Source of the DNA: Burkholderiaceae bacterium
Lineage (GTDB): Bacteria; Pseudomonadota; Gammaproteobacteria; Burkholderiales; Burkholderiaceae_E
Assembly: GCA_021166725.1 (NCBI GenBank)
Contig: JAJPES010000041.1
Span: forward strand, 1 to 64,000
Direction of reading: 5' to 3'
DNA: 64,000 nt
This document shows positions 2,632-53,127 of the stretch, piece after piece. Positions within the stretch are counted from its first letter, which is position 1, and every line of letters begins with the position of its first letter. The position numbers and the translations under genes were made by a program. A model generated the notes under the pieces. That model searched no databases. It saw only the letters and a list, made by a program, of their open reading frames with translations, and was not told where the DNA came from.

Positions 2632-3684
2632 TCAGCTGCCGCTGTCGTTCAGTTCGCGCGCAGCCGGCATCCGGCTGCGGTAGTGCTCGAAGATACGCAC
2701 CAGCGCCTCGCGCATGCCGATGGTCGGCTCCCAGCCGAGCTCCGCGCGCGTGTTCTCGATCGACGGGACGCGATCGCGCACGTCCTGGTAGCCGCTGCCG
2801 TAGTAGTCCTGCGCGCTCGTGTCGACCAGCGTGACGCGCGCGGCGTTGTCGCGGTACTCCGGATAGCCGGCGGCGATGTCGAGCATCATCTGCGCGAGTT
2901 CGCGCACCGAATGGTGGTTCTCGGGATTGCCGATGTTGTAGATGCGGCCGCCGGCGCGATCGTCGCGGTTCTCGATGATCTTCATCAGCGCCGCGATGCC
3001 GTCGTCGACGAAGGTGAACGAGCGTCGCTGCTGCCCGCCGTCGACCAGCTTGATCGGTTCGCCTCGCACGATGTGGCCGAAGAACTGCGTGACGACGCGG
3101 CTCGAGCCTTCGCGCGGCGTATCGATGCTGTCCAGTCCGCCGCCGATCCAGTTGAAGGGCCGGAACAGCGTGTAGCGCAGGCCGCGTTCGAGTCCGTAGG
3201 CGTGGATCACGCGGTCCATCAGCTGCTTCGAGCAGGCGTAGATCCAGCGCTGCTTGCCGATCGGCCCGTAGACGAGTTCGGAGGTTTCGGGGTCGAAGCG
3301 CTCGTCGCGGCACATGCCGTAGACCTCGGAGGTCGACGGGAAGACCAGATGCTTGCCGTAGTGCAGGCAGTGCCGCACCACCGGCAGGTTCGCCTCGAAG
3401 TCGAGCTCGAAGACGCGCAGCGGCTCCTTCACGTAGGTGGCGGGCGTCGCGATCGCCACCAGCGGGAGCACGACGTCGCACTTCTTCACGTGGTACTCGA
3501 TCCACTCGCGGTTGATCGTGATGTCGCCTTCGAAGAAGCGCAGCCGCGGATGGCCGATCCACTCGGCGATGCGCTCGTCGTGCATGTCGATGCCGTGCAC
3601 TTCCCAGTCGGTCTGCGACAGGATCGCGCGCGTCAGGTGGTGTCCGATGAAACCGTCGATGCCGAGGATGAGAACGCGCTTCAT
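2632..3684 (-). CDS. arnA: ArnA C-terminal-type UDP-glucuronate decarboxylase (separate gene)
   Basis: A 350-aa NAD-dependent SDR enzyme equivalent to the C-terminal half of E. coli ArnA, which oxidatively decarboxylates UDP-glucuronate to UDP-Ara4O. The Rossmann motif GIDGFIGHH is at residues 8-16; the catalytic Ser-Glu lies in PSTSEVYGM, and the Tyr-x3-Lys pair in YACSKQ. It overlaps the upstream formyltransferase gene by 4 nt (ATGA) and is followed by arnD after 10 nt. In enterobacteria this domain is fused to the formyltransferase; here it is a stand-alone gene. Confidence 0.93.
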   Translation of the reverse strand: MKRVLILGIDGFIGHHLTRAILSQTDWEVHGIDMHDERIAEWIGHPRLRFFEGDITINREWIEYHVKKCDVVLPLVAIATPATYVKEPLRVFELDFEANLPVVRHCLHYGKHLVFPSTSEVYGMCRDERFDPETSELVYGPIGKQRWIYACSKQLMDRVIHAYGLERGLRYTLFRPFNWIGGGLDSIDTPREGSSRVVTQFFGHIVRGEPIKLVDGGQQRRSFTFVDDGIAALMKIIENRDDRAGGRIYNIGNPENHHSVRELAQMMLDIAAGYPEYRDNAARVTLVDTSAQDYYGSGYQDVRDRVPSIENTRAELGWEPTIGMREALVRIFEHYRSRMPAARELNDSGS

Positions 3685-5677: not shown

Positions 5678-6801
5678 CGCAGGGCTGCCTTCGTCACGCG
5701 CTGAACGGCTTCGCATACGCGCAACACGTCGTCGTCGCGCATGCCGGCGTGCAGCGGCAGCGTGACGGTGCGGCGGCCGATGTCTTCGGCCACCGGAAAC
5801 TGCCCTTCGTGATAGCCGCGCGCCCGGTACAGCGCGAACAGATGCATCGCGGGGTAGTGCACGCCGACGGCGATGCCTTCGCGGCGCATCGCGTCGATGA
5901 ACTCGCCGCGGCCGATGCGCAGGCGATCCAGCGGCAGCAGCGGCTGGAACATGTGCCAGTTCGACTGCGCGAAATCGGCCGGCGGCAGCGCGAAGCCCAG
6001 CGAGCGGTCGAAGTGCTCGAAGTACAGGCGGGCCAGCGCGCGCCGACGCTCGTTGAACGCGTCGAGCCGGCGCAGTTGCACGATGCCGAGCGCCGCCGCG
6101 ATGTCGGTCAGGTTCGCCTTCGCGCCGAGCACGTCGACGTCCATCGACCCGTCGGGCAAGCGCGTGACGCCCTGCAGGCGCAGCTTCTCGAAGCGGCGCG
6201 CCTCTTCGGCGTCGTTCATCACCAGGCAGCCGCCTTCGCCGGTGGTCATGTTCTTGTTCGCATGGAAGCTGAACGAGACGAGGTCGCCGAAACTTCCGAT
6301 GCGCGCGCCCTTCCAGTTCGCGCCCATCGATTGCGCGGCGTCTTCGAGTACGCGCAGCTGGTGGTGCGCGGCGATCGCCGCGATCGCGTCGCGGTTCGTC
6401 GGCAGCCCTGCCAGGTCCACCGGCAGCAGCATCCGGGTGCGCGCACCGATCGCCGGTTCGATGCGCGAAACGTCGATGTTGCGCGTGCGCGCATCGGCAT
6501 CGACGAACACCGGCGTCGCGCCGACGGCGAGAACGACGTTGGCCGTGGCCACCCAGCTCAGCGGACAGGTGATCACCTCGTCGCCGGGTCCGATGCCGGC
6601 CAGGCGCAACGCGATCTCGAGCGCCGCGGTGCCCGATGCGACGACGCGCGTCGGGCGGCCGCCGAAGTACGCCGACAGCGCATCCTCGAACTCGCGACAG
6701 CGCGGGCCCGTGGTGAGCCAGCCGGAGCGCAGTACCGCGTCGACCGCCGCGCGTTCGTCGTCGCCGATCAGCGGACGGGCAAAGGGGAGTTCGTTGCTCA
6801 A
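5674..6801 (-). CDS. arnB: ArnB: UDP-Ara4O aminotransferase (PLP)
   Basis: A 375-aa DegT/DnrJ/EryC1-family aminotransferase that converts UDP-Ara4O to UDP-L-Ara4N with glutamate as donor. The PLP Schiff-base Lys is K183 in FSFHANKNMTTGEGG, with Asp154 in EDAAQS. The start codon is TTG, overlapping the arnT stop as TTGA; this gives the canonical N-terminus and there is no better ATG. The downstream junction with arnC is ATGA, so the whole operon is tightly coupled. Confidence 0.93.
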   Translation of the reverse strand: MSNELPFARPLIGDDERAAVDAVLRSGWLTTGPRCREFEDALSAYFGGRPTRVVASGTAALEIALRLAGIGPGDEVITCPLSWVATANVVLAVGATPVFVDADARTRNIDVSRIEPAIGARTRMLLPVDLAGLPTNRDAIAAIAAHHQLRVLEDAAQSMGANWKGARIGSFGDLVSFSFHANKNMTTGEGGCLVMNDAEEARRFEKLRLQGVTRLPDGSMDVDVLGAKANLTDIAAALGIVQLRRLDAFNERRRALARLYFEHFDRSLGFALPPADFAQSNWHMFQPLLPLDRLRIGRGEFIDAMRREGIAVGVHYPAMHLFALYRARGYHEGQFPVAEDIGRRTVTLPLHAGMRDDDVLRVCEAVQRVTKAALR

Positions 6802-13251: not shown

Positions 13252-14574
<1,323 letters not shown>

Positions 14575-15393: not shown

Positions 15394-16317
15394 TCAGCCG
15401 CCGCCTTTCACCCGCCCCAGCATCAGGTACTCGATCAACGCCTTTTGCGCGTGCAGCCGGTTCTCCGCTTCGTCCCAGACCACCGACTGCGGGCCGTCGA
15501 TCACCTCGCTGCTGACCTCCTCTCCGCGATGGGCCGGCAGGCAGTGCATGAAAAGAGCATCGGGCTTCGCCATGCGCATCATGTCGGCGTCTACGCACCA
15601 GTCTGCAAAGGCGCGCCGGCGCTGTTCGTTCTCTTCCTCGAAGCCCATGCTCGTCCAGACGTCGGTGGTGACGAGATCGGCGTCCGCGCAGGCCTGCATC
15701 GGGTCTTCGAACTGCTCGACGCGGCCACCGAAGCGGCCGGCGCGCTCCGGCTCGATCTCGTAGCCGGGCGGCGTGGAAACGCACATCTCGAAGTCGAGCA
15801 ACTCGGCCGCCTGCAGCCAGCTGTTGCACACGTTGTTCGAGTCGCCGATCCACGCTACCTTGCGCCCGGCGATCGGGCCACGATGTTCGATGAAGGTGTA
15901 GATGTCGGCCAGGATCTGGCACGGGTGATATTCGTTGGTCAATCCATTGACCACCGGCACGCGCGAATGCGCCGCGAATCGCTCGACGGTGTCCTGCTCG
16001 AAGGTGCGGATCATCACGATGTCGCACATGCGCGAGATCACCTGCGCAGCGTCCTCGACCGGCTCGCCGCGGCCGAGTTGGGAGTCGCGGGTGTTCAGGT
16101 AGATCGCCGCGCCGCCGAGCTGCTGCATGCCGGCCTCGAAGGACAGCCGGGTGCGCGTGCTGGCTTTCTCGAAGATCATCACCATCGTGCGATCGACGAG
16201 GGGGTGGTACTTCTCGTAGCGCTTGAAGCGGTCCTTGATGATTCGCGTGCGTTCGAACAGGTACTGGAACTCCTCGGCCGGGAGGTCGCGAAACTGCAGG
16301 AAGTGCTGGATCGTCAT
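15394..16317 (-). CDS. argF: Ornithine carbamoyltransferase
   Basis: A 307-aa anabolic transferase that makes citrulline from ornithine and carbamoyl phosphate. The carbamoyl phosphate loop STRTR is at residues 53-57 and the ornithine/catalytic motif HCLP at 258-261. The length is standard. It lies 10 nt after argD on the same strand, so argD-argF form an operon; argG is transcribed separately nearby. Confidence 0.95.
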   Translation of the reverse strand: MTIQHFLQFRDLPAEEFQYLFERTRIIKDRFKRYEKYHPLVDRTMVMIFEKASTRTRLSFEAGMQQLGGAAIYLNTRDSQLGRGEPVEDAAQVISRMCDIVMIRTFEQDTVERFAAHSRVPVVNGLTNEYHPCQILADIYTFIEHRGPIAGRKVAWIGDSNNVCNSWLQAAELLDFEMCVSTPPGYEIEPERAGRFGGRVEQFEDPMQACADADLVTTDVWTSMGFEEENEQRRRAFADWCVDADMMRMAKPDALFMHCLPAHRGEEVSSEVIDGPQSVVWDEAENRLHAQKALIEYLMLGRVKGGG

Positions 16318-51433: not shown

Positions 51434-51877
51434 TCAGCGCCCCGTACTCCCGAACCCGCTCGCGCCGCGCGCGCTTTCGTCGAAGCTCTCGACGACGTTC
51501 CACTGCACCTGCACGACGGGAACGACGACGAGTTGCGCGATGCGGTCCATCGGCTCGATGGTGAATGCGTCGCGGCTGCGGTTCCAGCACGAGACCATCA
51601 ACGGACCCTGGTAGTCGGAGTCGATCAGGCCGACGAGGTTGCCGAGAACGATGCCGTGCCTGGCGCCGAGGCCCGAGCGCGGCAGGACCATGGCGGCATA
51701 GTGCGGATCGCCGATGTGGATCGACAGGCCGGTGGACAGCAGTTGCGCGGCGCCGGGTTCGAGGACGAGCGGGGCGTCGATGCAGGCGCGCAGGTCGAGT
51801 CCGGCGCTGCCTTTCGTCGCGTAAGCGGGCATCTGCCCCGCCAGCCGCGGGTCGAGAATGCGAACGTCGAGTTTCAC
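51434..51877 (-). CDS. dut: Deoxyuridine 5'-triphosphate nucleotidohydrolase
   Basis: A 147-aa trimeric dUTPase, all five motifs present: [31 protein letters not shown], the Arg-rich [13 protein letters not shown]-like segment ([12 protein letters not shown]) and the C-terminal GFGSTGR. The start is GTG at 51877, 4 nt after the coaBC stop, which gives the usual [10 protein letters not shown]-terminus and the standard coaBC-dut pairing. Confidence 0.95.
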
Positions 51878-51881
51878 GATC

Positions 51882-52451
51882 TCATCCGGCGAGCCTGCGC
51901 GCGATCTCGTCGGCGAGCGCGCGCGCCAGCGCGTCCTTGCCGGCGCGCGGAAGACGTTGCGCACCATGCTCGTCGATCAGCAGCAGTTCGTTGTCGTCGC
52001 GTCCGAAGGTGTCGGGGCCGATGTTGGCCACCAGCAGCGGGACGCCCTTGCGCGCGCGCTTGGCGGCGCCGTGTTCCTCGAGCTTCTCGCTCTCGGCGGC
52101 GAAGCCCACGCAGTACGGGGCGCCGGGCCGGCGCGCGACGCTCGCCAGGATGTCGGGGTTCTCGGCGAATTCCAGCTTCGGGGCGCGGCCGCTGTCGTCC
52201 TTCTTCCACTTGCTCGCGCTCGTGTTGGCCACGCGCCAGTCGGCCACCGCCGCCACGCCGACGAAGACGTCGAAACGACGGCCTGCGCGCCGGCCATCGT
52301 CGAGTTCGGCCATCACCGCGTCGTGCATGCGCTGCGCCGTGTCGACGTCGATACGCCGCACGCCGCGCGGCCCGGCGAGCGAGGTGGGCCCGGCGACGAG
52401 GACGACTACGGCGCCCGCGACGCGCATCGCGCGCGCGAGCGCGAAGCCCAT
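51882..52451 (-). CDS. coaBC: CoaB remainder (C-terminal part of interrupted coaBC)
   Basis: A 189-aa fragment starting at the ATG directly after an in-frame TAG. It carries most of phosphopantothenate-cysteine ligase: [26 protein letters not shown], the lysine cluster [14 protein letters not shown] and [14 protein letters not shown]. The CoaB start (ITAGPTFEPIDPVR) lies in the other fragment. The two fragments read as one protein if the TAG is decoded. No ribosome binding site precedes the ATG, so a separate product would depend on stop-start reinitiation (TAG-ATG). Confidence 0.85.
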
Positions 52452-53090
52452 CTATCCCGACGAGCGGTTGGTGATCCCGCGCACCGGATCGATCGGCTCG
52501 AAGGTGGGCCCGGCCGTGATCAGCGCGCGTCTGCCGGCGAGCGTCTTCGGCACGAAGCTCGCGGCGATTTCCTCGACCAGTTCGAGCGGTTCGAGCATTC
52601 GCCCGAGTCCGACCTCGCCGCAGGCCTGGTCGCCGCTGCCGGGGCCGGCGACGAGGACGCCGTCGGCGACGATCTGCGCGACGTTGCGTTGCGTCGCCGG
52701 ATGCGACCACATCTGCCGGTTCATCGCCGGTGCGACGACCAGCGCGCACTCGCGCGCCAGGCACAGCGTGGACAGCAGGTCGTCGGCCAGGCCGTGCGCG
52801 AGCCTGGCGAGGAAGTCGGCGGTGGCCGGTGCGACGACGATCGCGTCGGCGCCGCGCGACAGCTCGATGTGCGCCATGTTGTCGGGGATGCGCGCATCCC
52901 ATGCATCGACGAACACCGGCTCGCCGCTGAGCGCCTGGAAGGTCACCGGACCGACGAAGCGCGTCGCCGCCTCGGTCATCACCACCTGGACCCGGGCGCC
53001 GGCGCGCTGCAGCTCGCGCACGAGCTCGGCCGACTTGTAGGCCGCCACGCCGCCGGTGACGCCGAGCACGATCCGTTTGCCGTCGAGCAT
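52452..53090 (-). CDS. coaBC: CoaC plus CoaB N-terminus (interrupted by amber codon)
   Basis: A 212-aa protein: the flavin decarboxylase CoaC (GVTGGVAAYK near residue 11, MTEAATRFV, APAMNRQMW with the catalytic histidine region, GSGDQACGEVGLGRM) followed by the first 25 or so residues of CoaB ending ITNRSSG. The next codon is TAG and then MGFALARA in the same frame. Relatives have a Lys between SSG and MGFA, so AAG to TAG is the simplest change. The pathway makes 4'-phosphopantetheine for CoA and is normally essential. Confidence 0.88.
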   Translation of the reverse strand: MLDGKRIVLGVTGGVAAYKSAELVRELQRAGARVQVVMTEAATRFVGPVTFQALSGEPVFVDAWDARIPDNMAHIELSRGADAIVVAPATADFLARLAHGLADDLLSTLCLARECALVVAPAMNRQMWSHPATQRNVAQIVADGVLVAGPGSGDQACGEVGLGRMLEPLELVEEIAASFVPKTLAGRRALITAGPTFEPIDPVRGITNRSSG

Positions 53091-53100
53091 TGAGGAAGTG

Positions 53101-53127
53101 AAGGGTGAAGGGTGAAGGGTGAAGGGT
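53101..53127. repeat. GGGTGAA tandem array upstream of coaBC
   Basis: Four GGGTGAA units in tandem on the plus strand between coaBC and mscS, single arm. It is followed at once by the hairpin 53129-53144. Confidence 0.75.

What the first reader, a model, noticed from the sequence alone, without database searches (positions are those of the whole stretch)
52440..52455. In-frame amber codon splits coaBC at an expected lysine
Minus-strand reading gives ...ITNRSSG, then TAG, then MGFALARA in one frame. The CoaB family has SSG-Lys-MGFA here, so a single AAG to TAG change explains it. Everything on both sides is intact, including catalytic motifs. CoaBC is normally essential and no other copy is visible in the window. 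TAG also ends many genes here (exbD, tctB, fccB, panB, the hydrolase), so global reassignment is unlikely. Options: sequencing or assembly error, an amber suppressor tRNA, TAG-ATG reinitiation giving a two-piece enzyme, or a second genomic coaBC.
Basis: partly seen in the sequence, partly recalled or inferred. Interest (0 to 1): 0.72.

Follow-up and report, generated by a model that had tools for sequence, protein, structure and literature searches.

The report
Stray stop codon in CoA-synthesis gene
One letter turns a lysine codon into a stop inside an otherwise intact gene for making coenzyme A; this is most likely a wrong letter in a draft genome from an environmental mixture, not a new way of reading the genetic code.

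Summary
Confirmed: on the minus strand, TAG at 52454-52452 interrupts an otherwise complete coaBC (53090-51882). Of 29 relatives, 24 have Lys and 5 Arg there; the two closest have AAG. The held genome (88.97% complete) shows no second CoaB domain.

Decoding explanations are not supported. TAG ends 250 of 1,507 complete predicted genes in the sampled half of the genome (three of these are the interrupted front pieces). Release factor 1 is intact. None of the 38 tRNAs found reads UAG, but five expected tRNAs are missing. The cut lies about 25-29 residues inside the CoaB domain, and the ATG after TAG is the Met present in 80 of 80 public homologues, so a selected split is unlikely. Constraint after the stop is normal.

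New: four more in-frame stops in 49.5% of the genome: AAG to TAG in ilvB and acnA, TAC to TAA in an hcrA-like gene, TGA in a CaiB-like gene with deletions. All three core-metabolism cases are AAG to TAG. This lysine bias is weak (P 0.04 to 0.005 by framing), so a lysine-inserting suppressor is not excluded.

Best reading: substitution errors or inviable variants in the consensus. No reads were available.

The parts
52455..53090 (-). Front piece of coaBC: whole CoaC domain plus the first 29 profile positions of the CoaB (DFP) domain, 212 aa
52452..52454 (-). In-frame TAG where relatives have Lys (24 of 29) or Arg (5 of 29)
51882..52451 (-). Rear piece of coaBC: rest of the CoaB domain, 189 aa and TGA stop, begins at the conserved Met
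51434..51877 (-). Downstream gene, dUTPase-like (name from sequence, recalled; no family search run on it)
   Evidence: predicted gene, kept in both near relatives as an aligned block

Best explanation
The TAG is a single-base substitution in the assembled consensus of an environmental Burkholderiales genome, not a working feature of the living cell. The organism most likely carries an intact coaBC, and the letter comes from a sequencing or assembly error or from a rare inviable variant taken into the consensus. Shown: the letter, its absence in relatives, normal constraint after it, a normal release factor 1, and no UAG-reading tRNA among those found. Inferred: that the letter is wrong or inviable, because reads could not be examined.
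For: All 29 relatives and 80 public homologues have a sense codon there. dN/dS own-G010 is 0.084 before and 0.127 after the stop, against 0.096 and 0.158 for G010-G012: no decay. TAG is an ordinary terminator, RF1 is intact, no CUA tRNA. The genome is fragmented and incomplete (88 contigs, 88.97%) and its nearest relatives are metagenome assemblies. Stops inside genes in this genome are not only AAG to TAG (TAC to TAA; a TGA in a gene with deletions), and other genomes show single stops in one related enzyme family.
Against: No reads seen. All three interrupted core-metabolism genes are AAG to TAG, which random error would rarely give. No frameshift was seen in 130 genes aligned to G012, so the assembly is not grossly error-ridden. 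Clustering of other private changes near the stops, which error would explain, was inconclusive.
Confidence: 0.72

Rival explanations
1. A real, recent nonsense mutation in the sampled population: the DNA truly carries TAG and CoaBC is lost or weak, with CoA made by salvage or by a coaBC in the missing part of the genome.
For: The genome is 88.97% complete. A decayed CaiB-like gene shows that real or apparent gene loss occurs here.
Against: CoaBC is normally essential (recalled; CoA essentiality also stated in PMC7794376, passages). No decay after the stop. One CoaB domain only in the held part.
Confidence: 0.15
2. Natural amber suppression with lysine: a tRNA with anticodon CUA, in the missing part of the genome or on an unbinned element, inserts Lys at UAG, so AAG to TAG changes are tolerated in essential genes.
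For: coaBC, ilvB and acnA each have TAG where relatives have Lys: 24 of 29, 27 of 29 and 28 of 28 readable. AAG to TAG is 8.5% of possible single-step stops; at least 3 of 5 gives P 0.005, at least 2 of the other 4 gives P 0.038.
Against: No CUA anticodon among 38 tRNAs; one tRNA-Lys, anticodon UUU. RF1 intact. TAG is not avoided as terminator: 250 of 1,507 here, 43 of 355 in G012 (the two gene sets used different length cut-offs). Two other stops are TAA and TGA.
Confidence: 0.06
3. Two-piece enzyme: termination at TAG and reinitiation at the adjoining ATG give CoaC with a CoaB stub plus the rest of CoaB, which assemble.
For: TAG is directly followed by ATG. CoaBC is a tight dodecamer in mycobacteria (PMC7794376, passages), so pieces might associate.
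Against: By alignment to 6TGV the cut falls near residue 217, inside CoaB (190-414) and not in the linker (180-189). The ATG is the Met found in 80 of 80 homologues, so it did not arise for reinitiation.
Confidence: 0.03
4. Global reassignment of TAG in this organism.
For: Three TAG codons at lysine positions.
Against: TAG ends 250 of 1,507 complete predicted genes in the sample, 3 of them interrupted front pieces; RF1 intact.
Confidence: 0.01

Closest known systems
Bifunctional CoaBC (Dfp): TIGR00521, PF02441 plus PF04127; solved example 6TGV
   Same: Same domain order and length; both pieces match consecutive parts of one model; the only CoaB domain found in the genome
   Different: An in-frame TAG replaces a position that is Lys or Arg in relatives
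Natural amber suppressor strains (recalled)
   Same: Amber codons inside otherwise intact essential genes
   Different: No CUA-anticodon tRNA found; RF1 intact; other stop types are present too
Pyrrolysine (UAG) coding (recalled)
   Same: In-frame TAG inside an open frame
   Different: No CUA tRNA found; the sites are plain Lys or Arg in relatives; PylS was not searched for

Membership tests
CoaBC (TIGR00521) | CoaC flavoprotein domain followed by CoaB (DFP) domain | tested here: met
   the two pieces cover 1-212 and 214-391 of 392
CoaBC (TIGR00521) | One uninterrupted frame | tested here: not met
   TAG at 52454-52452
CoaBC (TIGR00521) | Purifying selection over the whole length | tested here: met
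   dN/dS 0.084 before and 0.127 after the stop, own-G010
Lysine-inserting amber suppression | tRNA with anticodon CUA | tested here: inconclusive
   none among 38 tRNAs or in the sampled stretches; genome incomplete, tRNAs for Asn, Trp, Ile-GAT, Ala-TGC and Ser-GCT also absent
Lysine-inserting amber suppression | In-frame stops in intact genes are TAG at Lys positions only | tested here: not met
   3 of 5 are; the others are TAA at a Tyr position and TGA
Global TAG reassignment | TAG not used as terminator | tested here: not met
   250 of 1,507 predicted genes end in TAG
Split CoaC and CoaB | Break at the domain boundary | tested here: not met
   break 29 DFP positions into CoaB; near 6TGV residue 217, linker 180-189
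Consensus error | Reads carry a sense codon at the position | not testable with these tools
   no reads and no second genome of the species were available

The most novel reading that the evidence does not exclude
A wild Burkholderiales species carries an undetected lysine-inserting amber suppressor, so that AAG to TAG changes have begun to accumulate in core genes (coaBC, ilvB, acnA) while TAG still ends one gene in six: an early, ambiguous stage of codon reassignment caught in nature.
Probability: 0.06. Interest if true: 0.8.

Novelty: not a real feature. Interest (0 to 1): 0.25.

Why it matters
If it is error, it is mainly a caution: single-base stops in core genes of draft genomes should not be read as recoding without reads. 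If the lysine pattern were real, it would be a natural case of ambiguous UAG decoding in a free-living bacterium that keeps release factor 1.

Tried and rejected
A first codon-usage scan mistook antisense frames for genes and was discarded; the model was retrained from clear window genes. Stricter scans missed coaBC itself, so sensitivity is imperfect and the number of in-frame stops is a lower bound. The pair scans that covered the whole sample printed 83 rows (37, where 24 further pairs under the gap-score cut were not printed; 23; 12; 11; searches also dropped pairs under that cut, uncounted). I accepted 5 by reading the peptide across the stop and took the rest as ordinary gene ends, by eye and mostly without a homology check. 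The same holds for the rows of the single-stop scans; for example L231:14849 and L227:4933 were dropped as very short frames.

Homology checks: codons in relatives for coaBC, ilvB, acnA and the hcrA-like gene, the CaiB-like gene, and 130 genes against G012 proteins. The reverse check, own proteins on G012 DNA, gave 0 stops in 126 genes.

Error clusters around the stops looked likely at first but did not hold generally. At columns at least 95% conserved, own departures other than the stop were 2, 1, 2 and 4 in coaBC, ilvB, acnA and the hcrA-like gene (the last on 13 of its 29 loci), against 0, 1, 1, 0 for G010 and 0, 0, 1, 0 for G012. This leans to error, but the genes were picked for having stops and the own branch is longer. 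The G012 control (400 kb) showed no in-gene stop by eye, where about one would be expected at this genome's rate, so it does not discriminate. The codon table was wrong for minus-strand loci and was redone; the DNA alignment mixed orientations and was not used. Paper searches: (0 papers). Only PMC7794376 was opened, passages only. No claim of absence from print is made.

Full report
Observation. The minus strand from 53090 to 51882 encodes a CoaBC of the usual length with one TAG at 52454-52452. The two pieces match consecutive parts of TIGR00521 and of PF02441/PF04127. In 29 relatives the residue is Lys in 24 and Arg in 5. In 80 public homologues, the best 80 that one search kept, it is Lys in 79 and Arg in 1, with no in-frame stop in the aligned part; a few contigs are in both sets. 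The two closest relatives, 96% and 94% identical over the front piece, have AAG.

Genome context. The held genome has 3,566,393 bases in 88 contigs, 88.97% complete and 3.13% contaminated. That the window's own genome is a metagenome assembly too is my inference. The genome shows one DFP match and one match to the front piece at E 0.001.

Decoding machinery. The tRNA family search gave 38 genes. ARAGORN on the loci holding them shows no CUA anticodon, nor do the sampled stretches. The search with tRNA-Lys found itself and, next best, a 78% match that is a tRNA-Met; its anticodon is TTT. Missing from the list are tRNAs for Asn, Trp, Ile-GAT, Ala-TGC and Ser-GCT (which tRNAs to expect is recalled), so a missing suppressor cannot be excluded. 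Release factor 1 is present over the family cut-off without stops. In 1.764 Mb of own sequence, TAG ends 250 of 1,507 complete predicted genes, TGA 1,194 and TAA 63. Three of the 250 are the front pieces of coaBC, ilvB and acnA. In a 400-kb sample of G012, TAG ends 43 of 355 (with a shorter minimum gene length), so TAG is not avoided here.

Other in-frame stops. Scans of the sample gave four more genes with a stop inside: ilvB (L072:3665+, TAG), acnA (L225:6615-, TAG), an hcrA-like molybdopterin enzyme (L230:16304-, TAA) and a CaiB-like CoA transferase (L297:13984-, TGA). The gene names are recalled from sequence; no family search was run on these four. Relatives at the ilvB site: Lys in 27 of 29 (AAG 25, AAA 2), Arg 1, Ser 1. 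At the acnA site: Lys in 28 of 28 readable loci of 29. At the hcrA-like site: Tyr in 14 of 27 readable loci of 29, the rest being other residues in more distant paralogues; the 12 loci printed first all have TAC. The CaiB-like gene lacks two stretches that G012 has, so it looks decayed or misassembled; the codon of relatives at its TGA was not tabulated. One search, whose match list was cut short, also shows single in-frame stops in G004 (TAG), G005 (TAG) and G033 (TGA), so such stops are not peculiar to this genome.

Is there a lysine pattern? By codon usage in the first 334 kb, AAG to TAG is 8.5% of all single substitutions that make a stop. The chance of at least 3 of 5 is 0.005. Leaving out coaBC, which set the hypothesis, at least 2 of 4 is 0.038. 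For the two further core-gene cases it is 0.007, but the division into core and other genes was made after seeing the data. I treat this as a weak signal. Against it, 10,804 AAG codons remain in predicted genes of the sample, so TAG for Lys would be very rare.

Signs of error or decay. Own-G010 dN/dS is 0.084 before and 0.127 after the coaBC stop; G010-G012 gives 0.096 and 0.158. The rear piece is as constrained as in relatives, which fits a stop that is very recent, wrong, or read through. Clustering of other private substitutions within 60 bases of the stops is inconclusive (two measures each): coaBC p 0.13 and 0.29; ilvB 0.006 and 0.015, but G012-specific changes cluster there too (0.003 and 0.047); hcrA-like 0.038 and 0.041; acnA 1 and 1. 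At columns at least 95% conserved the own sequence departs 9 times, against 2 for G010 and 1 for G012, in the four genes with stops left out; the longer own branch and the choice of genes weaken this. No frameshift split was seen in 130 genes aligned to G012.

Two-piece enzyme. The front piece ends 29 profile positions into the DFP domain. By alignment to 6TGV the cut is near residue 217, where the linker is 180-189 and CoaB 190-414 (PMC7794376, passages). The following ATG is the conserved Met in 80 of 80 homologues. A functional split is possible in principle, but nothing here points to selection for it.

Verdict. The most economical reading is a wrong or inviable letter in a draft consensus; that no reads could be examined is the limit of this judgement. 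A lysine-inserting suppressor is the most novel reading not excluded, at about 6%.

Noticed in passing
L072:3038-4993 (+), stop at 3665; G000:C81: ilvB-like gene with an in-frame TAG where 27 of 29 relatives have Lys; an invariant Phe three codons before it is Val here.
   Followed up: yes
L225:6286-9591 (-), stop at 6615; G000:C2: acnA-like gene with an in-frame TAG where 28 of 28 readable relatives have Lys.
   Followed up: yes
L230:14649-17819 (-), stop at 16304; G000:C24: hcrA-like molybdopterin enzyme with an in-frame TAA at a Tyr position, with several private substitutions in the next 42 bases.
   Followed up: yes
L297:13253-14152 (-), stop at 13984; G000:C23: CaiB-like CoA transferase with an in-frame TGA and two stretches missing relative to G012.
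   Followed up: partly
G000:C63:20907-21125 and G000:C26:79237-79455: The same tRNA-Pro/tRNA-Arg pair lies near the end of contig C63 and in C26: a duplication or overlapping contigs.
   Followed up: no
window 53098-53127: Short 7-base tandem repeat, 4.3 copies, just upstream of coaBC; similar runs appear before the gene in G010 and G012.
   Followed up: no
G004:C31:15231-17471, G005:C1:1864146-1865609, G033:C43:51736-53019: Related molybdopterin-enzyme genes in other genomes also carry single in-frame stops: TAG, TAG, TGA.
   Followed up: no
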